This document shows positions 6,566 to 54,891 of a stretch of DNA of 57,506 nucleotides, one piece after another. The stretch covers positions 1-57,506 of the IMG/VR virus record IMGVR_UViG_3300002141_000035; one strand, given 5' to 3'. How positions within the stretch are numbered: position 1 is the stretch's first letter; every line of letters begins with the position of its first letter. The notes beneath the pieces were generated by a model. The model was not told the origin of the DNA and did no database searches. It saw only the letters and a program-made list of their open reading frames with translations. This DNA is from a virus. The position numbers and the translations under genes were made by a program.

Positions 6566-6949
6566 GGGGATGTACTGGTTTCGATTCAGTTGAGATAAAG
6601 TACGAGGCATGTAGAGGATGATAGTTGGCCTCTTAAAAATTTCTATCAAAAAGATTAAACGCAAAAAACGTAATCGCCTATGACTTCACTCCAGAAATGG
6701 ACGAAGTTGCTGTCGCAGCCTAATAAAAGGTTGTGCCGTTGAATGGATGACACACGATAGTCTATTCAACGAATTTTTCGTGAGTGTTTGGTAATTCGAC
6801 TTAGGTTACCAAACGAGAAAACTTGAGTATAAGGGTTGTGTGGTTTGGTATGTTCAGAACACAATCTCGAAAATTTAAACATCCTAAACATGTAGGCTTT
6901 GACGGTATAACGATTGAAGACATGGATTCAACTTCCATCATCTCCACCA
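6566..6949 (+). ncRNA. ssrA: Phage-encoded transfer-messenger RNA (tmRNA)
   Basis: The 384-nt RNA rescues stalled ribosomes and tags the unfinished protein. The acceptor stem pairs GGGGATG (6566-6572) with CATCTCC (6939-6945) with one G-U, followed by A and an encoded CCA (6947-6949). The T arm is ATGGA, loop TTCAACT, TCCAT (6922-6938). The first pseudoknot is complete: AGAGG (6613-6617) with CCTCT (6629-6633), and GATAG (6620-6624) with CTATC (6643-6647). The tag frame starts at GCA 6661 and reads AKNVIAYDFTPEMDEVAVAA, ending in tandem TAA stops (6721-6726). The final AVAA is a ClpXP-type degron. Further pairings (GTTGAAT with ATTCAAC; TTTGGTAA with TTACCAAA) fit later pseudoknots. SmpB would come from the host, since none is seen here. 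Confidence 0.95.
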
Positions 6950-27006: not shown

Positions 27007-29706
27007 ATGATTAAGAGTCTCAAGAAAGATGATGTTAGTGCCGTTCCATTTGTCGTTTCAAAAAGATGGAGAGCCACAAGCAAGGAAAACACCAGTTTAC
27101 TTCTAGGTGATGTAGATTTTGAATATGTGATATATTCATCATCTTTTTCTTCGGAAAGTGGGGATACATTCACATCGGAAGAATCAAGTTCCACAAGTTC
27201 ATCGTTTATCGCGGAATCATTCACCACCGGAGTAGCGGGCTTCTTATCTACTCCACTAGCTTTAGAATTTATAGATTATGGGGATGGTTGGCAATTTGGA
27301 TGTACATCTTCGTTACGAAACATAAGTAATTATGAAATTTTGGTAGAAGATACATCTTCCTACATCAGTATCGAAGCCGCCTCCGAATTTTTCTTGTTGG
27401 AAAGTTACAACGAATTAAGTACGAGTCGTGATCCTTATAATGGTCCAACGTATAGATTTGATTTGACTATGGATGTTCCATTTACAAACTCATCATGTGA
27501 TTTATGTCTCGAACAATCCGAGGATAATTTTTTGACTTTTGAAGATGGTATTCAAGTTGATAGTTATGTCAAATTTAATCCTGATATAGAGCCTCAAAAT
27601 TTGAATAATACCTACAAACGTATTACTTACAATCAAATCAAGAACTTGTTCTACAACAATTCAAATGACCCAACGAAATTATTGGGGTTGGAAAATTTTG
27701 ATGTGTTTTTGGATGCAAAAAATCGAGTTGTATATGATAATATAAAAGTTGTAACCATTCCTCAAGCATATTTTGGTGATAAAATTGTTGAAAATAGTGT
27801 GGAAATAATCGAAGATTCGGGTGACCAAGTTTATACCATTGTTGATGATGGTCGTGGAAATCTTCACGCACGAGAAAACATTTTCAGTGTAATAGTATCC
27901 GATGCAAATAAGGATATTAACTACTTCAATTCCGCATCGTATGTTAATTTTTCCAATTTCAACTTCTCCGTAAACGATATTGGAGTAAGTTCATCTATTA
28001 ATTGGCAGTATTACAAGAATAACATTCTGTATGTCAATCGTGATGTCATTGAAGATTTCGTCGTTCATGGATATACAATTAATGATGTGGTAACTCCAAT
28101 CAGTTACAACTCTAATCTTATTTATGTGGGTGAAGCCGGTACAAATTTGGATGTAGTTTCATTACCACATGAAGATTTGTTGGGATATTTCCGAAAAATT
28201 GAATGTGGTACGAATTTCGTAGTTGCATTGAAATCTTCGGGTGATGTGGTTACGTGGGGTGACTCAACAATAACAACGACTATTCCTACGTTTGATACCA
28301 AAGTGAGGGACATATCAGTTGGTGACCAACACGCAATTGCAATTGACGATAATGGCAAAATTTATGTGTGGGGAACATCAACTTACACCGGTTCACTACC
28401 AACTGTAACGAACAATTATAGATACATCAAAGCCGGACCTAGTGGTAGTGTAGCGATACATACCAACGGACGAATTTATGGATTTGGCCACAGTTCATGT
28501 AATTTATTTACCAATATTCCACAAGTGGGAAATATAGATAAAGTAGAAATTGGTAGTCAACATGGTATCATATTAGATAATAATGGTGATTTATACTCAT
28601 GGTCATCAAACTCTGATTACAGTCAATCATTAATACCAACTAGTGCAGAAACGGGTATTCAAGATGTAGTATGTGGTGATGACCACACCATTGCGTTAAA
28701 AACTGACGGTAGAATTATTGCATGGGGAAAGAATAATTTTTCACAATCGTTCATACCATTCGGGGAATCATTGACGGATTGGGCAGTAGTGGCTGGGGGA
28801 ATCGCAACTGTTGGATTAGCGGATGTAAGTGCCGTTCTAGCTAAAGGAAATCGTAGTGTTGCATCACAACGACGAATTACGGATGCGGTTGATAAACCAT
28901 ATAGGTTTACATTTGCATGGGGTCAACATCCATTCACAACCGAATATTCTTTGACGGATATACATTTGGGTAGAAATTACACAATATTGGATCCAAATGT
29001 AAATTATCAACAGTTGGTATATACAAATGATTATACATCTCCAACAATTTTGAAGGGTGCATTGAAATCAACAACAACATTGAATTTTGACATCAATCTT
29101 AACGGTACGAAAGAGTATAATTTAACGGATTACAAGGTTAAAATTTCCAAATTACATGACCCACATGGAACTCCAATGTTTTCTGGTTTGGGATTTTTAA
29201 CAACGAAGGTAAACAACAAAGAATTATATTCATACATTTCCAGTGGTGAAGATAATGAAATGACAATGAGTGTGGGATTGAAAACTTTTTATCTTGACAC
29301 TGGATCCATTGACTTATCCGATCCTCATTATGGTGGATATCGTAATGTACCAACATATATTACTCGGTTAACATCGAGTATATCAATGGGTCAAACCGGT
29401 TCGAGGGATTATAATAACACAATGACTGGTCGGTTTGTAAGTTATGACCACTCAACAACTGAATTGGTTGTTTTTGTGGATTCTGTTCAAGGAAGTGGAA
29501 TTTATGATAATTGGTCGATTGATTTTGGTAAAATCATTGTGAATGAACTTTTGGATGAATTGAATATCGCCGATACTACTTATAACCGATTGTATCTATC
29601 AGGTTCATCCTATACCACTTCGTCTAATTTAAATTCGATGTTAAAAGATGAATCGTTTATTGAACACTATTTAGAAAATCAAGGTTCTTACGACCCTTAC
29701 ACATAA
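27007..29706 (+). CDS. Large tail protein with RCC1-like beta-propeller
   Basis: 899 residues. Between about residues 398 and 595 there are successive RCC1-type blades: CGTNFVVALKSSGDVVTWGD, VGDQHAIAIDDNGKIYVWG, SGSVAIHTNGRIYGFGH, GSQHGIILDNNGDLYSW, CGDDHTIALKTDGRIIAWG. Each has the Gly-x-x-His-x-x-Ala/Ile-Leu pattern and an aromatic-Gly end. Flanking regions are beta-rich and unknown, with a Ser/Glu-rich stretch near residue 50. It is probably a baseplate-attached fibre or adhesion protein. The tail end LENQGSYDPYT runs directly into the next gene. Confidence 0.8.
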   Translation: MIKSLKKDDVSAVPFVVSKRWRATSKENTSLLLGDVDFEYVIYSSSFSSESGDTFTSEESSSTSSSFIAESFTTGVAGFLSTPLALEFIDYGDGWQFGCTSSLRNISNYEILVEDTSSYISIEAASEFFLLESYNELSTSRDPYNGPTYRFDLTMDVPFTNSSCDLCLEQSEDNFLTFEDGIQVDSYVKFNPDIEPQNLNNTYKRITYNQIKNLFYNNSNDPTKLLGLENFDVFLDAKNRVVYDNIKVVTIPQAYFGDKIVENSVEIIEDSGDQVYTIVDDGRGNLHARENIFSVIVSDANKDINYFNSASYVNFSNFNFSVNDIGVSSSINWQYYKNNILYVNRDVIEDFVVHGYTINDVVTPISYNSNLIYVGEAGTNLDVVSLPHEDLLGYFRKIECGTNFVVALKSSGDVVTWGDSTITTTIPTFDTKVRDISVGDQHAIAIDDNGKIYVWGTSTYTGSLPTVTNNYRYIKAGPSGSVAIHTNGRIYGFGHSSCNLFTNIPQVGNIDKVEIGSQHGIILDNNGDLYSWSSNSDYSQSLIPTSAETGIQDVVCGDDHTIALKTDGRIIAWGKNNFSQSFIPFGESLTDWAVVAGGIATVGLADVSAVLAKGNRSVASQRRITDAVDKPYRFTFAWGQHPFTTEYSLTDIHLGRNYTILDPNVNYQQLVYTNDYTSPTILKGALKSTTTLNFDINLNGTKEYNLTDYKVKISKLHDPHGTPMFSGLGFLTTKVNNKELYSYISSGEDNEMTMSVGLKTFYLDTGSIDLSDPHYGGYRNVPTYITRLTSSISMGQTGSRDYNNTMTGRFVSYDHSTTELVVFVDSVQGSGIYDNWSIDFGKIIVNELLDELNIADTTYNRLYLSGSSYTTSSNLNSMLKDESFIEHYLENQGSYDPYT

Positions 29707-32959: not shown

Positions 32960-33913
32960 ATGTTACATCAGGAAGAGATTGTATCAGTTTTAAACAAAGC
33001 GTTAAATCAGAAGGCTAAAATTAGAAAAGGCACTGATGCGGTTTATTTCTGCCCTAAATGTAAACATTACAAACGAAAGTTGGAAGTCAACTTAATTACA
33101 GGTAAGTATAATTGTTGGTCATGTGATTTTTCCGGGTTAACTCTTCGATCTCTTTTCAAAAAACTCAACGTTTCCCGTGAATTATACCGACTAGTTGATA
33201 TAAAATCGACGCATAATATCGACGTGGATATTGATGTCGTCAATTTACGAAATCTATTCTCACCAAAAGAAAATGTGGCTGAGATTGTCAATCTTCCAAA
33301 AGATTATAGACCACTATCCGAATATCACAACTCTCCAGAATATAGAAATGCGTTGAAATATTTGAAAGCAAGGAACGTATCTGATTACGATATTCATCGT
33401 TACCAAATTGGATATTGTGAAGATGGTGATTATCGTCAACGAATCATCGTTCCTTCATACGATGGTGATAACAATTTGAATTTTTTCGTGGGTCGTAGTT
33501 ATTATGACCAATGTTCTCTAAAGTATAAGAACTATGAGGGAAGTAAAAACGTGATTGGGTTTGAATCTTTGGTGGACTTCACACAGGAAATAACATTGGT
33601 TGAAGGTTCTTTTGATGCAATGGCGATTAGATATAATTGTGTTCCGTTATTTGGGAAAACATTGTCCAGAAAACTACGAGAATCGTTGATATTAAATGGA
33701 GTAACGTCGGTAAACGTGGTATTAGATAACGATGCGTTGTCAGAATGTCTCAATATTGTGACATTCTTAATGAAAAACAACATTAAAACAAAGTGTGTTG
33801 TCATGACGGAGAAAGACCCGTCAAAACTTGGATTTGAAAAAACTTGGGAGATTATCAATAATACAAAATTTATCGACTTCGATGAAATGTGTAAGTTAAA
33901 AATGAATTTATGA
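32960..33913 (+). CDS. DNA primase (zinc-binding plus TOPRIM)
   Basis: 317 residues. Four cysteines form a zinc ribbon: CPKC (31, 34) and CWSC (52, 55). The TOPRIM core follows with TLVEGSFDAMAI (Glu near residue 214) and VNVVLDNDALSE (Asp-x-Asp near 255). The enzyme would make RNA primers for lagging-strand synthesis. The size is similar to T4 gp61 (342). No helicase domain is attached. Its TGA overlaps the next ATG (33910-33913), so it is coupled to the gp47-gp46 fusion. Confidence 0.88.
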   Translation: MLHQEEIVSVLNKALNQKAKIRKGTDAVYFCPKCKHYKRKLEVNLITGKYNCWSCDFSGLTLRSLFKKLNVSRELYRLVDIKSTHNIDVDIDVVNLRNLFSPKENVAEIVNLPKDYRPLSEYHNSPEYRNALKYLKARNVSDYDIHRYQIGYCEDGDYRQRIIVPSYDGDNNLNFFVGRSYYDQCSLKYKNYEGSKNVIGFESLVDFTQEITLVEGSFDAMAIRYNCVPLFGKTLSRKLRESLILNGVTSVNVVLDNDALSECLNIVTFLMKNNIKTKCVVMTEKDPSKLGFEKTWEIINNTKFIDFDEMCKLKMNL

Positions 33914-36900
33914 ACGTGCAAAAATTGAACTGTGATGTGACGGAGTTTATTGGAATATTTCACATTGCGGATATTCACATCCGATTAACAAAAAGACACG
34001 ATGAATATCTCGACGTGTTTGAAAGGTTATATGAGGTCGTTGCGAAGACCCCGGAAAATACATGTGTCGCAATATTGGGTGATTTATTTCACTCTAAATC
34101 AAATCTCAGTCCCGAATGTGTGGGTATAGCTTCTGATTTCTTACGAAGACTTGCTGATTTGCGTCCGACTATATTGATTGCGGGAAATCACGACGCAACT
34201 TTGACCAACAAGAGTCGAATGGATAGTTTGAGTCCGATTGTCAATGCTATCAATCACAAAAATCTATTCTACTTGAAGGATACTGGTATTTATATCTTAG
34301 GAGACATTGTATTCAACCACATGTCCGTGTTCGATCCCGTAGAGAGTTATATCAGAGCCACCGACATTCCTAAAATATACACCAATCAAGCAAGACACGT
34401 CATTGCGTTGTATCATGGAGCTGTTCATGATGCAGTCTCCGACGTCGGGTATCGAATTAACAATCAATCGGTGACCGCAAATCTATTTGATGGACATGAT
34501 ATTGTCTTATTGGGGGATATTCACAAATATCAGACACTTGAAATTCCAGATTCCGATACGAAAATTGTATATGTTGGTAGTTTAATCCAACAAAATCACG
34601 GAGAATCTCTTGACAGCCATGGGTATGTATTGTGGAATTTAAAACAACGAATACACAAACAATTTGATATTGGTAATGAAAGGGGTTTCTATACTATCGA
34701 CATTGATAAGGGACACCTTAAAACGGATTTATCAAATCTTCCTAAGAAAGTCAAATTACGAGTGAGATGTAATGACTCAGATTATTTAGAAATCAAAGCT
34801 GTCATTGATGAAATTCGTAAACGTTGTGAGGTAGAACATTTGGTGTATTTAAAATCCGCTAGTGGAACCACACCAAACTCAGCTGCGGTCAGTGTGGAAG
34901 AACTTTCATTGGCTGATTTGAATTCTGTGGAACATCAGAACAAGTTAATTAAAGAATATCTTATGGCTCATACATCGGATAAAGAGGTTACCGATGATAT
35001 GTATGAGACGATTTTTCAAATCAATACACAACAGAATCAGTTGATTGACAAAGATAAATTGGTCCGAAACATTCGATGGAAACCTAAAAAATTCGAGTTT
35101 AGTAACATGTTTAGTTACGGTGAGGATAACGTCATTGATTTTACAAAGATGAAAGATGTAATTGGATTGTTTGCATCCAATGCTTCGGGAAAATCCTCGT
35201 TAATGTCTGCATTGAGTTTTTGTATATTTGATAAATGTGATAGAGCATTTAAAGCAACGCACATTTTAAATTCACAAAAGGCTACATTCCACTGTAAATT
35301 CAACTTTGAAATAGATAACACCGATTACTTCATTGAACGAAATGGTAAGTCGGATAAAAAGGGAAATGTAAAAGTGGATGTCAAATTCTGGAAAGAGGAA
35401 AATGGTTCCATAATCGAATTAAACGGAGAGGCTCGTCGTAGCACCAATGATTTAATCCGTGATTTTGTGGGTAGTTATGAGGATTTCATCTTAACGGTGT
35501 TATCCATCCAAAATAACAAATCGGGTAATTTTGTTGATATGGGACAGTCCGAACGTAAAGATTTGTTATCACAATTTATGGGATTGAATATCTTCGATAT
35601 ACTACACAGTAGTGCGTCGGAGACACTTAAAGAATTGAATAATGATGTCAAGTTATACCACCGTTATGATAACGGTGTGTCGATTGACGATTTGAGTGAA
35701 TCCATTGATGGATTCAAATTAGATTTGGTGACTTTAAATGAAGAGTCGGATAGACTGGTTGGTGAAAAGGAAAAATTGAATTCTTCGTTATTTGAAGAAA
35801 CCACCAAGTTGATTAAAATTGAGAACAATATTCCGAAGAATATTACATCCCTCGAATCGACACGTATTTCAGTATCTACAACCATTGCAAAATCGGAGAG
35901 TCAGATTGTAACATTGCAGGAATCTTTGAAGTTGGAATCAATTGAGTTGGAAAATACCAAAGAAGAATTGAAATCTATTGACACCGACGACGTTTCACAA
36001 AAATTCAATCAACTAAAAACGTTGCGAGAACAATTACAATCTATTAAACACATCATTGAGACGAAGAAGATTTTCATCACTGCTAAATTAGATAAAATCA
36101 ATAGATTACATAACCACCAATATGATCCAAACTGCAAATATTGTGTCAACAATTCATTTGTTAAAGATGCGTTGGATGCGGAAAGCTCCCTCGACAATGA
36201 TAAGGTAGAGGCTAATGATTTAGTCATCAATTATGAGGATAAGAAAAAACACATTGAGTCATTGGTGTATGTCGAAGAATTGCAACGAAAGTGTGATTTA
36301 TTAAAAGTCAAGTTGAATAACTGCGACAGACGTATCATCTCTATAAACCGAGAAATTACATCTTTGGAGTCAACCGTCCAGTCGAACAGTGTTCACCTAA
36401 CTAAGTTGGATAACGACATCAAACTCTATTACGACAATGAATCGAATATCAAATATAACCTCGAAGTGGAGTTGAAAGTAGGTAAAATACAACAGGAGAT
36501 TAGAAACACCGATATATTAATCAAACAGAATAATACCAAGATAATCAACTTGTCTGCAAATTTGAGTGGATATGAAAAGAACATGCAGGAGAAAATTGTC
36601 AACCGAGATAAGATGAAAAAAACCGAATCTGATTTGAAGTTATACGATTTATACGTCAAATCGGTTTCCCGTGACGGTATTCCATTTGATTTAATATCCA
36701 AGGCTGTCCCGGTTATTGAAAGTGACGTCAATGAAATTTTATCTCAGATTGTGGATTTCTCGGTAAATATAGAAACCGATGGAAAAAATGTCGTCACCAA
36801 TCTGGTGTATAGTGATAAGAAGTGGCCGTTAGAAATGGCGAGTGGGTTGGAGAAGTTCTTAACCTCTTTGGTCATCCGAGTTGCATTAATCAATCTCTCA

Positions 36901-37110
36901 AACCTACCTAGACCCAATTTCATCGCTATTGACGAGGGATTTGGGTGTGCGGATTCGGATAATTTGTCATCTATGCAATCCCTATTTGCAATATTGAAGT
37001 CGAATTTCGATTTTATGTTGATAATAAGTCATTTGGATATGATGAAAGATATGGTGGATGGTCAAATTGAGATAAAGAAAGAAGATGGACACTCGAAAAT
37101 AGTATATTGA
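33910..37110 (+). CDS. Single-chain gp47-gp46 (SbcD-SbcC / Mre11-Rad50) recombination nuclease
   Basis: 1066 residues. The N-terminal 350 residues are a metallophosphoesterase: IFHIADIHIR (Asp21, His23), ILGDLFHSK, IAGNHDAT, ALYHGAVHD, LLGDIHKYQ. From about residue 395 an SMC-type ATPase follows: Walker A LFASNASGKSS (about 420-430), a long coiled coil with a zinc hook CKYC (about 742-745), a second coil, and Walker B FIAIDEGFG (about 1003-1011). T4 makes these as two proteins (339 and 560 residues). Here both are in one unbroken frame. The complex processes DNA ends for recombination-dependent replication. Confidence 0.92.
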   Translation: MNVQKLNCDVTEFIGIFHIADIHIRLTKRHDEYLDVFERLYEVVAKTPENTCVAILGDLFHSKSNLSPECVGIASDFLRRLADLRPTILIAGNHDATLTNKSRMDSLSPIVNAINHKNLFYLKDTGIYILGDIVFNHMSVFDPVESYIRATDIPKIYTNQARHVIALYHGAVHDAVSDVGYRINNQSVTANLFDGHDIVLLGDIHKYQTLEIPDSDTKIVYVGSLIQQNHGESLDSHGYVLWNLKQRIHKQFDIGNERGFYTIDIDKGHLKTDLSNLPKKVKLRVRCNDSDYLEIKAVIDEIRKRCEVEHLVYLKSASGTTPNSAAVSVEELSLADLNSVEHQNKLIKEYLMAHTSDKEVTDDMYETIFQINTQQNQLIDKDKLVRNIRWKPKKFEFSNMFSYGEDNVIDFTKMKDVIGLFASNASGKSSLMSALSFCIFDKCDRAFKATHILNSQKATFHCKFNFEIDNTDYFIERNGKSDKKGNVKVDVKFWKEENGSIIELNGEARRSTNDLIRDFVGSYEDFILTVLSIQNNKSGNFVDMGQSERKDLLSQFMGLNIFDILHSSASETLKELNNDVKLYHRYDNGVSIDDLSESIDGFKLDLVTLNEESDRLVGEKEKLNSSLFEETTKLIKIENNIPKNITSLESTRISVSTTIAKSESQIVTLQESLKLESIELENTKEELKSIDTDDVSQKFNQLKTLREQLQSIKHIIETKKIFITAKLDKINRLHNHQYDPNCKYCVNNSFVKDALDAESSLDNDKVEANDLVINYEDKKKHIESLVYVEELQRKCDLLKVKLNNCDRRIISINREITSLESTVQSNSVHLTKLDNDIKLYYDNESNIKYNLEVELKVGKIQQEIRNTDILIKQNNTKIINLSANLSGYEKNMQEKIVNRDKMKKTESDLKLYDLYVKSVSRDGIPFDLISKAVPVIESDVNEILSQIVDFSVNIETDGKNVVTNLVYSDKKWPLEMASGLEKFLTSLVIRVALINLSNLPRPNFIAIDEGFGCADSDNLSSMQSLFAILKSNFDFMLIISHLDMMKDMVDGQIEIKKEDGHSKIVY

Positions 37111-39636: not shown

Positions 39637-40242
39637 ATGAAAAGAGCAAAAAACAAAAGCAACATCGAAATCGTAAAAGGATATTTGGCAGGCGAACGAC
39701 CATTCACACAAGTTGGTTGGGTGCCGGATTTTAAAAAACGAAAAGAAGGTGAAACTTGGACCGATGCACAAAATAAGTCTTGGATTTTCAAAGGTGGTCG
39801 TAAAAAACGTGTCAATAAGAGTGTAAAAATAAATCCAGATGACGTTAGATTGAGATGTAAAGATTGTCAAATGGATGTTAAATGGGGTAATTATCTCGAT
39901 GATCGAGTTTTTTACAAAAGCGGTAGATGTTACGATTGTTTAATCAAATTTGAAACCAAATTGAAACGTGATGGTGAATTTCGTCACTACGAACAAGTCA
40001 AAATTTTCAAAAATCAAAAAGGATTTTGTTTGGATTTGAAGGGTAAACTCGAAGATACCATAAAATATCTCGAAAACTCCAACGAGGACATCGTTTATAT
40101 AAACGAAGATGGTAGTAAAGATGTTTGGAAAGATACAACTAAAGGTCAAGTGTTGGAAGATGCAAAACGTGATTATCAGGAATGTTTGGATGCATTGGTT
40201 CGGATTGATGAACAGTTGGAAAAGTTAAAGAAATATGAGTGA
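39637..40242 (+). CDS. Zinc-ribbon protein upstream of the terminase
   Basis: 201 residues. Two pairs of cysteines, CKDC (about residues 73-76) and CYDC (about 98-101), probably hold a zinc ion. The C-terminal half is a long charged helix (LEDAKRDYQECLDALVRIDE). Its position matches T4 gene 16 (small terminase), and it overlaps terL by 8 nt, but the sequence does not look like a typical gp16. DNA binding during packaging is a reasonable but unproven guess. Confidence 0.65.
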   Translation: MKRAKNKSNIEIVKGYLAGERPFTQVGWVPDFKKRKEGETWTDAQNKSWIFKGGRKKRVNKSVKINPDDVRLRCKDCQMDVKWGNYLDDRVFYKSGRCYDCLIKFETKLKRDGEFRHYEQVKIFKNQKGFCLDLKGKLEDTIKYLENSNEDIVYINEDGSKDVWKDTTKGQVLEDAKRDYQECLDALVRIDEQLEKLKKYE

Positions 40243-41077
40243 CCCAAAAGTTAATTTACGAGATGTAATTAAGAGTGAGTATTCTAGGTGTTTGGTGGAT
40301 CCAATATACTTCATGAAGAAGTATGTTAAAATTCAACATCCGCTTCGGGGGACAATTCCATTTGAACTTTATCCATTTCAGGAAAAAGCGTTGAGAGAAT
40401 TATGCGATAATAATTACAACATTATTCTCAAATCACGTCAGATGGGTATTACCACTCTGACGTCCGCATACTCATTATGGATGATGATTTTCCATCCTGA
40501 TAAAAACATTCTCTGTATCAGTATCAAACAAGAAACGTCGAAAGAAATTGTTACACGGGTAAGATTTGCAAACAATAATCTACCTTCTTGGTTGAAATTA
40601 CAATGTGTTGAAGATAATCGGCTTTCCCTCCGATTAAAAAATGGTTCTCAAATCAAAGCAGTTTCATCATCCGGTGATGCAGGTCGTTCTTCCGCACTTT
40701 CATTGTTGATTATTGACGAAGCAGCCTTCATTGACAATATCGAAGAAATTTGGTTGTCCGCACAATACACTCTATCTACTGGTGGTAAAGCAATTATTCT
40801 CAGTACTCCAAACGGTGTTGGTAATTTCTTTCATAAGACGTGGATGAAAGCAGCGGCAGATGAAAATGAATTCAATACCATTAACCTCCCTTGGTATTTA
40901 CATCCAGAAAGAGATCAACACTGGCGAGATAAACAAACGGAATTGTCCGGTGTAAAAGGTTCGGCTCAAGAATGTGATTGTCTGTGGGGAGAATCCAAAG
41001 TTTGTGTTCGAGATATAAACACCAAAGTCGTAAGTTATATGACATTGGAAGAATTATTCATCTCTTTATCAAATTAA
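40235..41077 (+). CDS. terL: Terminase large subunit, N-terminal part, fused to split-intein N-fragment
   Basis: 280 residues. Residues 1-248 are the TerL ATPase domain: Walker A-like LKSRQMGITTLTSAYS (about 70-85), Walker B LLIIDEAAFID (about 156-166), and the coupling region LSTPNGVGNFFHKTW. At Cys249 (TGT 40979-40981) an intein begins: CLWGESKVCVRDINTKVVSY continuing MTLEELFISLSN to the stop. The Cys1 and the GES/T-KV pattern are intein block A. The nuclease half of the terminase is missing here and lies in the gene at 41821. The packaging motor would be rebuilt by protein trans-splicing. Confidence 0.93.
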   Translation: MSDPKVNLRDVIKSEYSRCLVDPIYFMKKYVKIQHPLRGTIPFELYPFQEKALRELCDNNYNIILKSRQMGITTLTSAYSLWMMIFHPDKNILCISIKQETSKEIVTRVRFANNNLPSWLKLQCVEDNRLSLRLKNGSQIKAVSSSGDAGRSSALSLLIIDEAAFIDNIEEIWLSAQYTLSTGGKAIILSTPNGVGNFFHKTWMKAAADENEFNTINLPWYLHPERDQHWRDKQTELSGVKGSAQECDCLWGESKVCVRDINTKVVSYMTLEELFISLSN

Positions 41078-41080
41078 CAC

Positions 41081-41087
41081 TATTTAT
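41081..41087 (+). promoter_or_regulatory. Candidate late promoter element TATTTAT
   Basis: CACTATTTATACG in the 28-nt gap between the terL N-part and the endonuclease gene; ATG at 41106. Confidence 0.35.
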
Positions 41088-41090
41088 ACG

Positions 41091-41105
41091 CAAGAATGTG
41101 ACTGT
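41091..41105 (+). repeat. Copy of the terL extein/intein junction codons
   Basis: CAAGAATGTGACTGT matches 40967-40981 (CAAGAATGTGATTGT) at 14 of 15 positions. Both encode Gln-Glu-Cys-Asp-Cys, and the single difference is synonymous. It lies immediately before, and in frame with, the endonuclease ATG. Confidence 0.8.
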
Positions 41106-41828
41106 ATGAATTATGTTAAATTAGGTTGGGATAATATAAAATTAGAATTGAACTCTATTAATGAATTTTATTCTTTATCCGAGACAGTTAGTAGATTAAA
41201 GCATGAAAATTTTTATAAATCTTTGTTTGGTAAAGCAAAAAACAGAACTCTAATAAAATCTGATCCAATTTTGTATAAATCAATATATACATGGACTTCT
41301 ATTTTAGAATTAACGTTTAAAAGTCAAAAATCATACAAAGGAAATTTTAATTTCAAATATCGTATTTTGTTTTTAGTAGAAAAAAATGCAGATGTCCAGA
41401 AATTACTATGTAAATGTGGTAAACGATATACATGGAACACATATTGTAGATATTGTCCAGAATATCATGTTACTTGTAAATCACATTCTACGGAAACGAA
41501 GAAAAAACAAAGAATTGCAGCCATAAATTATATATCAAATTGTTCCGGTAAATGTGTTCCTAGATATAATCGCAGTGCAATTAAATTGATTGAATCATAT
41601 GGACGTGATAATGGATATAATTTTCGGCACGCAGAAAACGGTGGTGAAGTGTTTCTATCAAGTTTAGGATATTGGTTAGATGCTTATGATGAGGAAAAAA
41701 ATGTTGTTTTGGAGATTGATGAACCGAGACATTTTAAAAATGGAAAACTAAAAAACAAAGATTTACAGAGACAAGTTGAGATAGAAAATTTTCTAGGATG
41801 TAAATTTGTACGGATTAAATATGATTAA
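41106..41828 (+). CDS. Free-standing homing endonuclease, Vsr-like EDxHD type
   Basis: 240 residues. The nuclease core is near the C-terminus: GGEVFLSSLGYWLDAYDEEK (Glu and Asp), NVVLEIDEPRHF (Asp, His), then a basic stretch and GCKFVRIKYD. This follows the Vsr-like EDxHD family described with fractured phage genes. A zinc-finger-like cysteine cluster (CKC, CRYC, C at about residues 102-124) precedes it. The gene sits exactly between the two terminase halves and its end overlaps the start of the second half by 8 nt. It presumably cuts unfractured terL alleles to spread the split arrangement. Confidence 0.85.
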   Translation: MNYVKLGWDNIKLELNSINEFYSLSETVSRLKHENFYKSLFGKAKNRTLIKSDPILYKSIYTWTSILELTFKSQKSYKGNFNFKYRILFLVEKNADVQKLLCKCGKRYTWNTYCRYCPEYHVTCKSHSTETKKKQRIAAINYISNCSGKCVPRYNRSAIKLIESYGRDNGYNFRHAENGGEVFLSSLGYWLDAYDEEKNVVLEIDEPRHFKNGKLKNKDLQRQVEIENFLGCKFVRIKYD

Positions 41829-43023
41829 AAATAATAAATATGAAATACAAACGCCGTCTGGATTTCAACATTTTGAAGGAATTAGAAAGTTGGAGAAATC
41901 CGAACATGTAAAATTGACATTATCGGATGGAACAGTTCTCAAATGTTCACTCACACACCCATTTATATCTAATGGAAAAGAAATAAAATGTTCGGAATTA
42001 TCAATTGGCACTATTTTAGATTCACGTCAACTTAATAAATATACTACAGTTAAATGTATTGAAAAAATTAATGATTCAATACTATTATATGATATAGTAG
42101 AAGTTACTGGTGGGAATATTTTTTACGTCGATGGGATTGTCTCACATAATTGTGATTTTACAACAACTGGCCATACCGTATTGGAAACCGATACGTTGAA
42201 ATGGATTAAAGAAAATAGAATTAAAGACCCAATAGAAAAACGATTTGCAAACCAAAGTCTATGGATTTGGGAATATCCAGATTATACGAAGAATTATTTG
42301 ATTTGCGCCGACGTTGCTCGTGGTGATGGTGATGATTATTCCGCATTTCACGTTCTTGAAATGGAATCATTGACACAGGTTGCGGAATTTAAAGGTGCGG
42401 TAGATACCAAGACTTATGGAAATCTACTCGTCAGTATGGCAGTCGAGTATAATAAAGCAATATTGGTCGTGGAAAATAACAACATCGGATGGGCAACTCT
42501 ACAACAGGTTATTGATTCACAGTATCCAAATACATTTTATAGTAGTGCCGATTTACACTACGTCGATTTGGAAAAACAATTAACTAACAAACATCATCGA
42601 ATTGAGAGAAACATGGTTCCGGGTTTCACCACAACCACCAAAACCAGACCACTTATAATTTCGAAATTGGAAGATTATTTCAGAGAACGTAGTGTTATTA
42701 CAAACTCGATTCGATTATATGAAGAATTATCCGTCTTCATCTGGAATAATGGAAAAGCACAAGCAATGACTGGATATAATGACGATTTAGTTACTTCATT
42801 GGGTATGGGATTATGGGTAAGAGATACAGCACTTAGACTCAAATCTGAATCCGGGGAGTATGTTAAATCATTAATCGGAGGTATTAGTAAAACAGGTGAT
42901 ACCGAGGTTATTTATACATCCCAAACAAAGAAATCTCATGATTATTGGAGCATGCCTTCATCAGCCGGTAGTTCATTAACAAATCCAAATAGAGAAAGAG
43001 AAGATCTAAAGTGGTTGTTATAA
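41821..43023 (+). CDS. terL: Split-intein C-fragment fused to terminase large subunit, C-terminal part
   Basis: 400 residues from the ATG at 41821. Residues 1-110 are the intein C-part: MIKNNKYEIQTPSGFQHFEG, block B-like LKCSLTHPFISNG, block F-like LLYDIVEVTGGNIFYVDG, and the end IVSHN (Asn110, AAT 42148-42150) followed by Cys111. Residues 111-400 are the TerL nuclease domain: CDFTTTGHTV, ICADVARGDGDDYSAFH (first acidic residues), ILVVENNNIG, and AMTGYNDDLVTSLGMG (final Asp pair). Splicing of 248 and 290 residues gives a 538-residue terminase. An upstream TTG at 41806 is possible but not needed. Confidence 0.93.
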   Translation: MIKNNKYEIQTPSGFQHFEGIRKLEKSEHVKLTLSDGTVLKCSLTHPFISNGKEIKCSELSIGTILDSRQLNKYTTVKCIEKINDSILLYDIVEVTGGNIFYVDGIVSHNCDFTTTGHTVLETDTLKWIKENRIKDPIEKRFANQSLWIWEYPDYTKNYLICADVARGDGDDYSAFHVLEMESLTQVAEFKGAVDTKTYGNLLVSMAVEYNKAILVVENNNIGWATLQQVIDSQYPNTFYSSADLHYVDLEKQLTNKHHRIERNMVPGFTTTTKTRPLIISKLEDYFRERSVITNSIRLYEELSVFIWNNGKAQAMTGYNDDLVTSLGMGLWVRDTALRLKSESGEYVKSLIGGISKTGDTEVIYTSQTKKSHDYWSMPSSAGSSLTNPNREREDLKWLL

Positions 43024-49736: not shown

Positions 49737-51466
49737 ATTTAAAAAGCGTAAATGTTAGTTTAACAAATACAAATACTATGAATGAAATTAAAGAATTGTT
49801 GACAAGCAACGTTAGTCCAATGAATCGTTTATTGGAAGAAACACGTGGTTTGCAAGGCAAATGGGAAAAAACCGGTTTGCTCGAAGGTTTGAAAGGTGTC
49901 GAGAAGGCACAAATGTCTGTTTTGCTTGAAAACCAAGCACAACAATTGATCAAGGAAGCTACCTCAACGGGTACTTCTACCAACAGTGAACAATGGGCAG
50001 GGGTTGCTCTTCCATTGGTTCGCCGTGTGTTCGCAGAAATCGCAGCAAAGGAATTCGTCTCGGTTCAACCAATGAATCTCCCAAGCGGTTTGATTTTCTA
50101 TCTCGACTTCAAATACGGTAATACCCGTGGGGGGCACACCGAAGGTGATTCGTTGTTCGGTGGTACGTTGAAGAAGCTCGGTTCTACCGATAGCGCTACC
50201 AACGGTCTATACGGTGCTGGTCGTTTCGGTTATACCATTAACCCAACGTCTTCCGTCGTTACCGCAGCATCCTCATCCTTGGCTGTCGATTTAACCGCAT
50301 GGTCCGCAGTGAACTATGATGCCGACTATTCTGCAAGTGCAGTTGCCGGTGATTACCAAAAGATTACGTGGAACCTCGGTTCTAACGCAGCTCGTTGGGA
50401 TACAACCGCAGTAAGAAGTTTCACCTTCTTCTCCGAATCCGTTGACTTGAACGTGTTGGGTCAATTCACGAAGGTATATAACACTGGTTCCGCAGCTTCT
50501 CCATACTATGTAGTTGAAGCAGTTGTAACGTCATCCTTGGACTTGGCTGGTTCGGTAGTCGGTGTCTCTGGTAGCTTACAACCAAGTGATGCAACCCGTG
50601 GTGACTTCGAAGACAAATATCCGTTTAGCGGAAGTGGTGCTAACTCTGGTATTAACGCAGGTGTTGACATTGGTATTCCAGAAGTCAACTTGGAACTCAA
50701 GAGCGAACCAATCGTGGCTAAGACCCGTAAGTTGAAAGCAGTCTGGACTCCAGAACTCGCACAAGACTTGAACGCTTACCACAGCATTGACGCAGAAGCA
50801 GAATTGACTGCTCTCTTGAGTGAATATGTCTCGATGGAAATCGACCTCGAAATCCTCGACATGTTATTGACCTCCGCTCCCGGTGCCACCACCGAAGCAT
50901 GGTCTGCTAAGATTGGTACGGAATTCACCAGAACGCTTGACGCAAGTGGTAACGCTTCGTTCACCCGTATCGAAGATTCCGCAGCAAACAGAACCGCGTA
51001 TGTCAAATCCACATGGTTCCAAACGCTCGGTAACAAGATCCAAAAGGTATCTAACAAGATTCACCAATTGACTCTCCGTGGTGGTGCTAACTTCGTGGTC
51101 GTAAGTCCCGATGTTGCTACTGTCTTGGAATGTATCCCTGGCTTCATGGTCAACACTGACGGTGATAGTGCTAAATTCGCGATGGGTGTAAGTAAGGTCG
51201 GTAGCTTCGCTAACCGTTTCCAAGTTTACAAGAACCCATACATGGTTGAAAACCAAATCTTGGTTGGTTTCCGTGGAAATAACTTCCTCGAAACCGGTGC
51301 TGTTTACAGCCCATACATCCCATTGGTTCAAACTCCATTGGTTTACGATCCAGTGAACTTCACGCCTCGTCGTGGTGTCATGACTCGTTATGCTAAGAAG
51401 GTAGTTCGCCCAGAATTTTATGGCCGAATCTTGATTGCCGACTTGAACTACGTGTAATCAATAACG
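48908..51466 (+). repeat. Tandem duplication, copy A (scaffold 3' part plus capsid gene)
   Basis: This 2559-bp segment is repeated at 51480-54050 with near-perfect identity. It covers codons from about 77 onward of the scaffold gene and the whole capsid gene. By eye the copies differ in a 12-bp indel cluster in the scaffold linker and four substitutions in the capsid gene. Confidence 0.95.
49778..51457 (+). CDS. gp23: Major capsid protein, gp23-like (copy A)
   Basis: 559 residues (T4 gp23 has 521). The start MNEIKELLTSNVSPMNRLLE leads to LIKEATSTGTS, where gp21-type cleavage after Glu60 (I-x-E) would leave the mature N-terminus. The conserved core follows: AGVALPLVRRVFAEIAAKEF, VQPMNLPSGLIFYLDFKYG and the C-terminal RRGVMTRYAKKVVRPEFYG. 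It lies 41 nt after the scaffold stop. This copy has Gly258, Val260 and Gly262 where copy B has Ala, Thr and Val. Confidence 0.95.
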   Translation: MNEIKELLTSNVSPMNRLLEETRGLQGKWEKTGLLEGLKGVEKAQMSVLLENQAQQLIKEATSTGTSTNSEQWAGVALPLVRRVFAEIAAKEFVSVQPMNLPSGLIFYLDFKYGNTRGGHTEGDSLFGGTLKKLGSTDSATNGLYGAGRFGYTINPTSSVVTAASSSLAVDLTAWSAVNYDADYSASAVAGDYQKITWNLGSNAARWDTTAVRSFTFFSESVDLNVLGQFTKVYNTGSAASPYYVVEAVVTSSLDLAGSVVGVSGSLQPSDATRGDFEDKYPFSGSGANSGINAGVDIGIPEVNLELKSEPIVAKTRKLKAVWTPELAQDLNAYHSIDAEAELTALLSEYVSMEIDLEILDMLLTSAPGATTEAWSAKIGTEFTRTLDASGNASFTRIEDSAANRTAYVKSTWFQTLGNKIQKVSNKIHQLTLRGGANFVVVSPDVATVLECIPGFMVNTDGDSAKFAMGVSKVGSFANRFQVYKNPYMVENQILVGFRGNNFLETGAVYSPYIPLVQTPLVYDPVNFTPRRGVMTRYAKKVVRPEFYGRILIADLNYV

Positions 51467-52320: not shown

Positions 52321-54050
52321 ATTTAAAAAGCGTAAATGTTAGTTTAACAAATACAAATACTATGAATGAAATTAAAGAATTGTTGACAAGCAACGTTAGT
52401 CCAATGAATCGTTTATTGGAAGAAACACGTGGTTTGCAAGGCAAATGGGAAAAAACCGGTTTGCTCGAAGGTTTGAAAGGTGTCGAGAAGGCACAAATGT
52501 CTGTTTTGCTTGAAAACCAAGCACAACAATTGATCAAGGAAGCTACCTCAACGGGTACTTCTACCAACAGTGAACAATGGGCAGGGGTTGCTCTTCCATT
52601 GGTTCGCCGTGTGTTCGCAGAAATCGCAGCAAAGGAATTCGTCTCGGTTCAACCAATGAATCTCCCAAGCGGTTTGATTTTCTATCTCGACTTCAAATAC
52701 GGTAATACCCGTGGGGGGCACACCGAAGGTGATTCGTTGTTCGGTGGTACGTTGAAGAAGCTCGGTTCTACCGATAGCGCTACCAACGGTCTATACGGTG
52801 CTGGTCGTTTCGGTTATACCATTAACCCAACGTCTTCCGTCGTTACCGCAGCATCCTCATCCTTGGCTGTCGATTTAACCGCATGGTCCGCAGTGAACTA
52901 TGATGCCGACTATTCTGCAAGTGCAGTTGCCGGTGATTACCAAAAGATTACGTGGAACCTCGGTTCTAACGCAGCTCGTTGGGATACAACCGCAGTAAGA
53001 AGTTTCACCTTCTTCTCCGAATCCGTTGACTTGAACGTGTTGGGTCAATTCACGAAGGTATATAACACTGGTTCCGCAGCTTCTCCATACTATGTAGTTG
53101 AAGCAGTTGTAACGTCATCCTTGGACTTGGCTGCTTCGACAGTCGTTGTCTCTGGTAGCTTACAACCAAGTGATGCAACCCGTGGTGACTTCGAAGACAA
53201 ATATCCGTTTAGCGGAAGTGGTGCTAACTCTGGTATTAACGCAGGTGTTGACATTGGTATTCCAGAAGTCAACTTGGAACTCAAGAGCGAACCAATCGTG
53301 GCTAAGACCCGTAAGTTGAAAGCAGTCTGGACTCCAGAACTCGCACAAGACTTGAACGCTTACCACAGCATTGACGCAGAAGCAGAATTGACTGCTCTCT
53401 TGAGTGAATATGTCTCGATGGAAATCGACCTCGAAATCCTCGACATGTTATTGACCTCCGCTCCCGGTGCCACCACCGAAGCATGGTCTGCTAAGATTGG
53501 TACGGAATTCACCAGAACGCTTGACGCAAGTGGTAACGCTTCGTTCACCCGTATCGAAGATTCCGCAGCAAACAGAACCGCGTATGTCAAATCCACATGG
53601 TTCCAAACGCTCGGTAACAAGATCCAAAAGGTATCTAACAAGATTCACCAATTGACTCTCCGTGGTGGTGCTAACTTCGTGGTCGTAAGTCCCGATGTTG
53701 CTACTGTCTTGGAATGTATCCCTGGCTTCATGGTCAACACTGACGGTGATAGTGCTAAATTCGCGATGGGTGTAAGTAAGGTCGGTAGCTTCGCTAACCG
53801 TTTCCAAGTTTACAAGAACCCATACATGGTTGAAAACCAAATCTTGGTTGGTTTCCGTGGAAATAACTTCCTCGAAACCGGTGCTGTTTACAGCCCATAC
53901 ATCCCATTGGTTCAAACTCCATTGGTTTACGATCCAGTGAACTTCACGCCTCGTCGTGGTGTCATGACTCGTTATGCTAAGAAGGTAGTTCGCCCAGAAT
54001 TTTATGGCCGAATCTTGATTGCCGACTTGAACTACGTGTAATCAATAACG
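51480..54050 (+). repeat. Tandem duplication, copy B
   Basis: 2571 bp matching 48908-51466. The 13-nt junction 51467-51479 (CTGCTGAAGGTGA) is not found at the copy A boundary and would encode Ala-Glu-Gly-Glu in the scaffold frame. The copies share the sequence through TAATCAATAACG after the capsid stop and diverge there. Confidence 0.95.
52362..54041 (+). CDS. gp23: Major capsid protein, gp23-like (copy B)
   Basis: 559 residues, identical to copy A except Gly258Ala, Val260Thr and Gly262Val, all within 17 nt. The intergenic 41 nt before it are the same as before copy A. A terminator follows at 54064-54093, which copy A lacks, so both capsid genes would be read on one transcript. Two near-identical capsid genes would raise expression or allow variant capsomers; a strain-mixture assembly artefact is the main alternative. 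Confidence 0.9.
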   Translation: MNEIKELLTSNVSPMNRLLEETRGLQGKWEKTGLLEGLKGVEKAQMSVLLENQAQQLIKEATSTGTSTNSEQWAGVALPLVRRVFAEIAAKEFVSVQPMNLPSGLIFYLDFKYGNTRGGHTEGDSLFGGTLKKLGSTDSATNGLYGAGRFGYTINPTSSVVTAASSSLAVDLTAWSAVNYDADYSASAVAGDYQKITWNLGSNAARWDTTAVRSFTFFSESVDLNVLGQFTKVYNTGSAASPYYVVEAVVTSSLDLAASTVVVSGSLQPSDATRGDFEDKYPFSGSGANSGINAGVDIGIPEVNLELKSEPIVAKTRKLKAVWTPELAQDLNAYHSIDAEAELTALLSEYVSMEIDLEILDMLLTSAPGATTEAWSAKIGTEFTRTLDASGNASFTRIEDSAANRTAYVKSTWFQTLGNKIQKVSNKIHQLTLRGGANFVVVSPDVATVLECIPGFMVNTDGDSAKFAMGVSKVGSFANRFQVYKNPYMVENQILVGFRGNNFLETGAVYSPYIPLVQTPLVYDPVNFTPRRGVMTRYAKKVVRPEFYGRILIADLNYV

Positions 54051-54138: not shown

Positions 54139-54891
54139 ATGATTAGTGGTATTTATAAAATAACAAATGTTGAAACCCACCGTTTTTATATAGGGTCATC
54201 TAAAAACATTGATGGTCGGTGGGTGGAACACCGTCGAAATCTTAATGATGGTTGTCATGTAAATCAAAAATTACAAAATGCGTGGAATTTATATGGGGAG
54301 GGTAAATTCCGGTTTGATGTAATAGAACTGGTGGATTTGGGTCAGTTGATTATTAGAGAACAATTTTACTTGGATACATTTAAACCATATTTAAGAGACG
54401 TGGGATATAACATTTGTTCCACCGCAAGTGGTGGAGACAACATCACTAACAATCCAAATAAAGAACAGTTTATTGAGAAAATGAAAACCATTTGTTCAGG
54501 TGAAAATAATCCGATGTTTGGAAAACGTCACTCAAATGATTCTATTTCTATCCAAAAAAGAAAAGCCAAGGGACGATTTACACGTAATTGGTTTATTGAA
54601 AAATATGGAAGTGAAGGTCCGCAAAAGTATCAAGAAAGAATTGAGAAGTTGAGAAATCGAAAAATAAATTACGTATATTCCAATAATCTATCCGGTAGAG
54701 TGGTTGGTAAAATGACCGACGAATGTAAATTACGTATAAAAGAAAGTAAATCTAGGATGAAAACAATTAAACCACTTTTATATCAGGATATAAAAGATGG
54801 GTTACTGACCGTTGTTGAATTGTCTACTAAATATAATCTTGGAATGACGACGGTAAAATACCACAAACGAAAAATAAAAAATATCCAATGA
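54139..54891 (+). CDS. GIY-YIG homing endonuclease (Seg-like)
   Basis: 250 residues. The nuclease domain has SGIYKITNVETHRFYIGSS (about residues 3-21), then RWVEHRRNLNDG with the catalytic-type Arg and a Glu near 70 in IIREQFYLDTF. GENNPMFGKRHSNDS (about 130-144) is a NUMOD3 DNA-binding motif, and the C-terminus has a helix-turn-helix-like segment (TVVELSTKYNLGMTTVKYHK). It lies directly after the capsid genes, a classic position for a mobile nuclease. Confidence 0.9.
   Translation: MISGIYKITNVETHRFYIGSSKNIDGRWVEHRRNLNDGCHVNQKLQNAWNLYGEGKFRFDVIELVDLGQLIIREQFYLDTFKPYLRDVGYNICSTASGGDNITNNPNKEQFIEKMKTICSGENNPMFGKRHSNDSISIQKRKAKGRFTRNWFIEKYGSEGPQKYQERIEKLRNRKINYVYSNNLSGRVVGKMTDECKLRIKESKSRMKTIKPLLYQDIKDGLLTVVELSTKYNLGMTTVKYHKRKIKNIQ

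What the first reader, a model, noticed from the sequence alone, without database searches (positions are those of the whole stretch)
40235..43023. Fractured terminase gene with a naturally split intein and an intervening homing endonuclease
Seen: terL stops at 41077 after a 32-residue intein N-fragment starting at Cys249. The nuclease half restarts at 41821 behind a 110-residue fragment ending VSHN before Cys. A separate endonuclease gene fills the gap. Known: such fractured genes were described from marine metagenomes (gp41, NrdA, NrdJ, IMPDH), and the AceL-TerL intein is split unusually close to its N-terminus. The short N-fragment here fits that atypical class. Inference: trans-splicing restores a 538-residue terminase, so packaging depends on a self-assembling intein whose short first half could be made independently.
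Basis: partly seen in the sequence, partly recalled or inferred. Interest (0 to 1): 0.9.

Follow-up and report, generated by a model that had tools for sequence, protein, structure and literature searches.

The report
Split phage terminase with mobile endonuclease
A virus of bacteria makes its DNA-packaging enzyme in two pieces that very probably glue themselves together, with a selfish DNA-cutting gene lodged between the pieces; the arrangement is a known kind, but a promoter-like motif and a short copy of the presumed target site in front of the cutting gene suggest how it may be kept in check.

Summary
terL is split into 40235-41077 (ATPase half plus a 32-residue intein N-part from Cys249) and 41821-43023 (110-residue intein C-part ending HN, then nuclease half), with a separate 240-residue endonuclease gene (41106-41828) between, in three reading frames. 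Two other assemblies carry the same arrangement. An intein-less relative (L003) has exactly the joined 538-residue TerL. The C-part matches CatC, the engineered consensus of AceL-/GOS-TerL split inteins (E 1e-13; fold). So this is a new member of a known kind: fractured genes with an atypically split TerL intein and a Vsr-like endonuclease.

Beyond the finding: (1) related terL genes have the intein with, without or with other endonucleases, or contiguous; in some close pairs the insert is far more similar than flanking terL, as expected of recent homing. (2) Before the endonuclease start lies a promoter-like TATTTATA, then a 14/15 copy of half the terL insertion site (41091-41105). Across 21 dissimilar loci this match beats all 238 control 15-mers. 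I read it as a homing-site-like operator, as in T4 I-TevI; binding is untested.

The parts
40235..40978 (+). N-extein: ATPase half of the large terminase (248 aa)
   Evidence: Pfam Terminase_6N 9.5e-15; PHROG terminase large subunit 4.8e-45
40967..40981 (+). left half of the insertion (predicted homing) site, CAAGAATGTGATTGT, coding QECD plus Cys1
   Evidence: sequence; same protein junction uninterrupted in L003
40979..41077 (+). intein N-part, 32 aa from Cys1, then stop
   Evidence: compared with the N-parts of relatives
41081..41088 (+). TATTTATA, promoter-like element (reads as a T4-type late box TATAAATA on the minus strand)
   Evidence: TATTTATA within 40 nt upstream of 5 of 49 plus-strand genes (ORFs picked by my script) against 0.28 expected; CTATTTATA 5 times against 1.0 expected
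41091..41105 (+). homing-site-like element CAAGAATGTGACTGT directly before the endonuclease ATG; proposed operator
   Evidence: 14 of 15 to the terL site; 21-locus test: none of 238 controls as high
41106..41828 (+). free-standing Vsr-like endonuclease gene (240 aa); cysteines C102 C104 C114 C117 (probably zinc); catalytic domain about residues 153-240
   Evidence: 38-row alignment A4; model mean pLDDT 90.9; structural matches; dN/dS 0.07-0.28 in pairs of relatives
41821..42150 (+). intein C-part, 110 aa, with block-B-like S43xxH46 and C-terminal H109 N110
   Evidence: 6dsl_B CatC 1.1e-13; fold match; H46, H109, N110, C111 invariant in 24 rows
42151..43023 (+). C-extein starting with Cys+1: nuclease half of the large terminase (290 aa)
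   Evidence: T4 gp17 and RB49 gp17 nuclease, sequence and fold

Best explanation
A T4-like myophage terL gene is fractured by a mobile cassette. The two gene products each carry part of an atypically split class 1 intein; they associate, the intein excises itself and joins Asp248 to Cys111 of the second product, giving a normal 538-residue TerL (inferred; chemistry from the AceL/GOS/Cat group). The gene between them encodes a Vsr-like homing endonuclease that presumably cuts intein-less terL alleles at the QECD/CDF site, so that repair copies N-part, endonuclease gene and C-part together (mobility supported by synonymous-divergence patterns in some relatives; cutting not shown). The endonuclease gene has its own promoter-like element followed by a near-copy of half of its presumed target; most likely the protein binds there without cutting and represses itself, as I-TevI does (inferred, about 0.6). 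When the endonuclease is deleted the intein can stay split, so the fracture outlives its cause. The stated confidence is for the trans-splicing intein plus homing endonuclease; the operator step carries its own lower figure.
For: anatomy, independent assembly, 538-aa intein-less sibling with exact junction; CatC and gp17 by sequence and fold; catalytic residues invariant in 24; Vsr-like domain, conserved E/D/H residues; endonuclease dN/dS 0.07-0.28 in the 10 of 11 pairs with finite dS; L006/L130 dS: N-part 0, endonuclease 0.11, C-part 0.16 against terL 0.73 and 1.53; L006/L130, 60-nt windows: 93-100% identity from +20 to +980 of the insert, mostly 75-93% in the flanks; endonuclease gene absent in L271 and L145/L163 beside close relatives that have it, intein kept split; operator-like element.
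Against: No splicing, cleavage, binding or transcript data. The 32-aa N-part alone has no database hit. Not every pair shows a younger insert: L006/L105, L130/L105, L161/L213 and L168/L207 do not, and of six identity profiles only L006/L130 and L006/L271 rise sharply at the insert. With each locus's own site as query the element beats all controls in only 9 of 57 loci (6 of 33 with a Vsr-like gene, the window among them). TATTTATA is the reverse complement of a T4 late box, and half of its 10 plus-strand copies in the window are not near a gene start; its promoter role is inferred. The TATNTATW pattern was chosen after seeing the gaps. Structural Z values for Vsr (6.9) and I-Bth0305I (7.1) lie under 8 and below mitoribosomal proteins (10.7).
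Confidence: 0.9

Rival explanations
1. The gap is a group I or group II intron (RNA splicing), as reported for terL of phage ICP1, and the intein-like residues are incidental.
For: ICP1 terL is interrupted by an intron with a neighbouring endonuclease gene (passages of PMC10448857).
Against: Rfam search of the whole window finds only a tmRNA; both flanks of the gap code for intein parts kept in more than 50 relatives, with H46, H109, N110, C111 invariant in 24 aligned rows; contiguous inteins at the same site (L099, L103, L169, L265).
Confidence: 0.03
2. The short repeat before the endonuclease is not an operator but a fossil of how the endonuclease gene entered the intein, carrying a piece of terL target site with it.
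For: It is the left half of the site and the likeness stops at the Cys codon; in the window it is in frame with the endonuclease start. Endonuclease-less loci would then lose it simply by deletion, as L145 and L163 did.
Against: It is kept across loci whose C-parts are only 36-49% identical to the window's, next to TATNTATW or TATTTATA in 13 of 18 loci (0.24 expected by mononucleotide shuffling, pattern chosen afterwards), while the rest of the gap varies. It is found beside endonuclease remnants (L107, L167) and in L271 and L165, which have lost the gene, but not in L100, L108, L112, L129, L132, L145, L163. In the clade of L042/L094/L101 it lies in another frame and order.
Confidence: 0.3
3. 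The two halves work unspliced, as a terminase in pieces held together non-covalently.
For: A ribonucleotide reductase gene split by an endonuclease gene is reported to work that way (PMC10448857 passage).
Against: Here Cys1, H46, H109, N110 and Cys+1 are kept, which a mere docking tail would not need.
Confidence: 0.05
4. The endonuclease is a dead remnant.
For: Remnants do occur in relatives (L107, L167).
Against: The window copy is full length and has the conserved E, D, H and Cys residues of the 38-row alignment, to which it belongs; dN/dS 0.07-0.28 in pairs of relatives (the window itself was in none of the pairs).
Confidence: 0.07

Closest known systems
AceL-TerL and GOS-TerL split inteins, and their engineered consensus Cat (PDB 6dsl)
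   Same: terL host gene, Cys+1, short N-part (25, 37 and 30 aa against 32 here), C-part 104-115 aa against 110; sequence and fold match to CatC; lengths from passages of PMC11766414, split after the first helix from passages of PMC13014065
   Different: sequence divergence (35% identity to CatC); GOS-TerL uses Ser1, here Cys1; here the genomic locus with its endonuclease and upstream element is seen. AceL and GOS sequences themselves were not compared
Fractured genes with Vsr-like (EDxHD) homing endonucleases (Dassa et al. 2009; recalled, paper not held)
   Same: gene broken by a split intein with a free-standing endonuclease gene between; Vsr-like catalytic fold
   Different: as recalled the founding set was of DNA synthesis and repair enzymes; whether the homing-site-like element was noted there could not be checked
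Aeromonas phage PX29 gene 17A/17B
   Same: terL with N-intein and C-intein in the same region and an endonuclease between
   Different: GIY-YIG endonuclease fused to the C-intein product rather than a free Vsr-like gene
I-TevI operator of phage T4
   Same: sequence like the homing site (15 of 20) in front of the endonuclease ORF at a promoter, giving autorepression (passages of PMC2988022)
   Different: I-TevI is GIY-YIG, in a group I intron, proven by experiment; here inferred by sequence only, 14 of 15 of one half site

Membership tests
Atypically split TerL intein (AceL/GOS/Cat group) | N-part of about 25-37 aa and C-part of about 104-115 aa on separate genes in terL | tested here: met
   32 and 110 aa, separate ORFs in different frames
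Atypically split TerL intein (AceL/GOS/Cat group) | sequence homology of the C-part to the group | tested here: met
   6dsl_B CatC E 1.1e-13 with the window C-part alone
Atypically split TerL intein (AceL/GOS/Cat group) | HINT fold of the assembled intein | tested here: inconclusive
   C-part modelled without the N-part matches 6dsl_B (TMt 0.76) and gp41-1; model mean pLDDT 75.5; the pair was not modelled together
Class 1 intein | Cys/Ser1, block B His, C-terminal His-Asn, Cys/Ser/Thr+1 (block names recalled) | tested here: met
   Cys249; H46, H109, N110, C111 invariant in 24 rows
Class 1 intein | splicing activity | not testable with these tools
   needs expression
Fractured gene | enzyme gene broken by a split intein with a free-standing endonuclease gene between | tested here: met
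Vsr-like / EDxHD homing endonuclease | PD-(D/E)XK-type catalytic fold as in Vsr | tested here: met
   residues about 153-240: 3r3p I-Bth0305I Z 7.1 rmsd 3.9 over 74; 1cw0 Vsr Z 6.9 rmsd 3.0 over 80; FASTKD4 RAP module 7.5; moderate scores, and Foldseek alone gave no hit at E <= 0.001
Vsr-like / EDxHD homing endonuclease | EDxHD catalytic motif (positions recalled) | tested here: inconclusive
   invariant E177, E181, D192, E203, E206, H209, D219 in 38 rows, but which residues are catalytic was not tested
Vsr-like / EDxHD homing endonuclease | cuts the intein-less allele | not testable with these tools
   indirect only: insert younger than host gene in some pairs
I-TevI-type autoregulated endonuclease | homing-site-like sequence before the ORF | tested here: met
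   41091-41105; 21-locus test
I-TevI-type autoregulated endonuclease | that sequence lies at a promoter | tested here: inconclusive
   TATTTATA at 41081-41088 is promoter-like by position only
I-TevI-type autoregulated endonuclease | binding and repression | not testable with these tools
   none
Group I or II intron | catalytic RNA of a described family in the gap | tested here: not met
   Rfam gathering-threshold search of the window: only tmRNA

The most novel reading that the evidence does not exclude
Endonucleases living inside split inteins of phage terminases carry their own promoter and an uncut copy of half of their target as an operator, so that a selfish gene inside an essential motor gene represses itself; and the same intein passes repeatedly between contiguous, split-with-endonuclease and split-without-endonuclease states, with different endonuclease families (Vsr-like, GIY-YIG, HNH, DUF559-type) entering at the same split point of the intein.
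Probability: 0.5. Interest if true: 0.7.

Novelty: new member of a known kind. Interest (0 to 1): 0.5.

Why it matters
How split inteins arise and persist is an open question. This terL site offers intact, contiguous, split, endonuclease-bearing and endonuclease-deleted alleles among relatives, including deletions whose breakpoints look like short direct repeats, so the order of events can be tested. If the operator is real, self-repression at a target look-alike, shown for the T4 intron endonuclease I-TevI, would have arisen for a split-intein endonuclease of another catalytic family. The intein itself is also a candidate tool with a 32-residue N-part.

Tried and rejected
RNA intron: Rfam negative. 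Endonuclease identity by sequence: no hit above cut-off in Pfam, none in NCBIfam or PHROGs, and only unconvincing PDB hits (best E 1.1); approached by fold instead. Foldseek alone had no PDB hit at E <= 0.001 for the endonuclease. N-part alone against PDB: no hit. The T4 late box TATAAATA as such is not enriched in the window (12 found, 7.2 expected, 7 of 100 shuffles as many); 10 of the 12 lie on the minus strand, which led to the TATTTATA test. The composite pattern with up to 3 mismatches is found once, exactly, in each of the two longer records of this phage and, with 3 mismatches, in that of L004; it is not found in those of L005 and L006, and in those of L271 and L180 only at other places. 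An inverted second copy of the site in the L042/L094/L101 clade looked striking by eye, but over 21 loci 29 of 238 controls did as well: not claimed. Junction-spanning copies in loci with GIY-YIG, HNH or other gap genes: 15 of 17 loci tested; L311 beats all 443 controls, L295 all but 3, L293 (no gap gene) all but 21, the other 12 do not stand out; mean 15.1 against 14.2: suggestive only. The tree of 61 intein rows does not resolve the window's place, and the state labels are about as scattered as shuffled ones, so the direction of change (splitting or refusion) is not settled; only the close pairs suggest direction. Prevalence was not estimated: loci were fetched because they resemble the query.

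Rows dropped: one search had 41 loci with a Vsr-like gene at QECD/QEFD junctions, 2 with gaps under 20 nt left out, 39 thinned to 21 dissimilar ones; of 9 endonuclease-less loci 7 were usable. One search left out 5 loci with gaps under 25 nt. One search used the 18 of 21 loci with a match of 10 or more. One search keeps 120 terL entries out of 327 records after removing duplicates and partial genes; the window's genome counts twice there (W and L114), and L103/L109 are near-copies.
Full report
What is there. terL-N (40235-41077) ends with 32 residues that start at Cys249; terL-C starts at ATG 41821 with 110 residues ending VSHN and continues with Cys111 and the nuclease half. The 240-residue ORF 41106-41828 fills the gap and overlaps the terL-C start. 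All three lie in different frames. The window is an IMG/VR record of 57,506 bases. L002 from another IMG/VR record agrees over 11,200 nt with 4 mismatches and no gap; a third record encodes the identical endonuclease and C-part.

Intein. The N-extein is a T4-type terminase ATPase half; the C-extein matches T4 and RB49 gp17 nuclease by sequence and fold. The C-part matches CatC, the engineered consensus split TerL intein, at E 1.1e-13 and, as an AlphaFold model of mean pLDDT 75.5, by fold (6dsl_B, E 4.2e-8, TMt 0.76). The natural control is L003: its terL is uninterrupted, 538 aa, and reads SAQECD-CDFTTTGHTV where the window has the intein; 248 + 290 is also 538. H46, H109, N110 and C111 are invariant in 24 aligned rows. 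The N-part is recognised only through its place and its relatives.

Literature seen. Passages of PMC11766414 give AceL-TerL 25/104 aa with Cys1/Cys+1 and GOS-TerL 37/115 aa with Ser1/Cys+1; passages of PMC13014065 place both splits after the first helix. Dassa 2009, Bachmann and Mootz 2015 and Stevens 2018 are not held; what I say of fractured genes beyond citing papers is recalled. PX29 in the phage collection is annotated with N-intein, GIY-YIG endonuclease and C-intein in gene 17A/17B. The arrangement is therefore known.

Endonuclease. Sequence searches found nothing convincing. An alignment of 38 rows, the window included (A4), has four invariant cysteines (C102, C104, C114, C117), probably a zinc site, and invariant E177, E181, D192, E203, E206, H209, D219. 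The model has mean pLDDT 90.9 and pTM 0.59. Residues from about 153 to 240 align with Vsr-like folds: I-Bth0305I Z 7.1, Vsr Z 6.9, FASTKD4 RAP module 7.5, mitoribosomal proteins up to 10.7; these are moderate values. In one scan each, 3 relatives were confirmed in bacterial and archaeal genomes (query A4) against 279 in viral contigs (query A2).

A series of states. From 327 records, 120 distinct terL entries with both halves were classified: 56 intein-less, 45 split with a free endonuclease, 8 split without, 5 contiguous inteins, 2 with an endonuclease remnant, 2 with the endonuclease fused to the N-part, 2 with another gene in the gap. These numbers reflect what was fetched, not abundance. 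In more distant split terL genes the gap gene is HNH (L307, L286, L326), GIY-YIG (L304, L288, L085; fused to the N-part in L083) or DUF559-like (L320); L309 and L290 match no family. Close pairs differ in having the endonuclease: L271 against L130/L180 and L145/L163 against L209/L207. Read by eye from that alignment, the missing pieces lie between short direct repeats (about 8 and 10 bp), and in L145/L163 the C-part now starts at an ATG inside the end of the N-part gene, so the intein stays split.

Mobility. Of 13 pairs compared by Nei-Gojobori counts, L006/L130, L133/L135, L126/L127 and L271/L006 have clearly lower synonymous divergence in the insert than in terL (for L006/L130: N-part 0, endonuclease 0.11, C-part 0.16 against 0.73 and 1.53); L207/L209 only in the intein parts; L145/L163 slightly; L221/L224 in the endonuclease but not the N-part; L006/L105, L130/L105, L161/L213 and L168/L207 do not; L104/L098 and L175/L181 are saturated in terL. 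Of six identity profiles L006/L130 and L006/L271 rise sharply at Cys1 and fall again within about 200 nt beyond the C-part; the other four show little contrast. Endonuclease dN/dS is 0.07-0.28 in the 10 of 11 pairs with finite dS.

The element before the endonuclease. 41091-41105 is CAAGAATGTGACTGT, one base off the terL site 40967-40981. first showed it across loci by eye and by simple shuffles. The proper test: for 21 dissimilar gaps the mean best match to the consensus site half is 11.67 of 15; 238 control 15-mers from the terL consensus give a mean of 8.43 and at most 10.00. For 7 endonuclease-less loci it is 9.71 (15 of 238 controls as high), and the high ones are L271 (14) and L165 (12); remnant loci L107 and L167 score 14 and 13. 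L145 and L163 lost it with the deletion itself. A stricter per-locus test with each locus's own site beats all controls in 9 of 57 loci, the window among them, and not in the rest (in L207 the controls were also beaten, but by another stretch), perhaps because the sites have drifted at silent positions. TATNTATW in the 14 nt upstream of the element, or TATTTATA overlapping or just behind it, is seen in 13 of 18 loci with a match of 10 or more, 0.24 expected by mononucleotide shuffling, the pattern having been chosen after looking. In the window TATTTATA lies within 40 nt of 5 of 49 plus-strand gene starts, 0.28 expected; 5 further copies do not. The exact composite occurs once in each of the two longer records of this phage. 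T4 I-TevI has a like layout with 15 of 20 identity and is an autorepressor (passages of PMC2988022). My reading, an operator, stays an inference; a fossil of insertion is the main rival. My paper searches listed no paper whose listing describes such an element in a fractured gene, but most listed papers were not opened and the key 2009 paper could not be read.

Verdict. Observation and interpretation hold; the kind is known; the interest lies in the allele series and the proposed operator.

Noticed in passing
window 49778-51457 and 52362-54041: Two copies of the major capsid gene gp23 (556 of 559 residues identical) in a tandem repeat of about 2.5 kb; two other assemblies of the same phage show one match, so it may be an assembly artefact.
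   Followed up: partly
window 6566-6949: A tmRNA gene in the phage (Rfam RF00023, 136.5 bits).
   Followed up: no
window 33910-37110: One 1066-aa ORF matching SbcD-like (N-terminal) and SbcC-like (C-terminal) families, i.e. apparently a fused SbcDC.
   Followed up: no
window 54139-54891: A second homing endonuclease gene (PHROG homing endonuclease 1.8e-21; a GIY-YIG family also hit) directly after the second gp23 copy.
   Followed up: no
L004 6201-10217, L005 6210-10010, L006 6197-9145: The portal gene next to the fractured terL seems to carry contiguous inteins in these relatives (ORFs of 1338, 1266 and 982 aa against 664 in the window, by eye).
   Followed up: no
L082 1837-4056 and L087 3194-5300: Further intein-like inserts at other terL sites: near the Walker A region in Vibrio phage VP-1 and after the IDE of Walker B in phage SRB7757.
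   Followed up: no
L116/L217, L240: terL reading frames broken by in-frame stops at several places, which may mean a reassigned stop codon.
   Followed up: no
L241-L248: The C-terminal domain of the endonuclease family occurs with other N-terminal parts and without terL matches in the stretch fetched.
   Followed up: no
window 27007-29706: An 899-aa protein with RCC1-type repeats (Pfam RCC1_2 1.9e-36).
   Followed up: no
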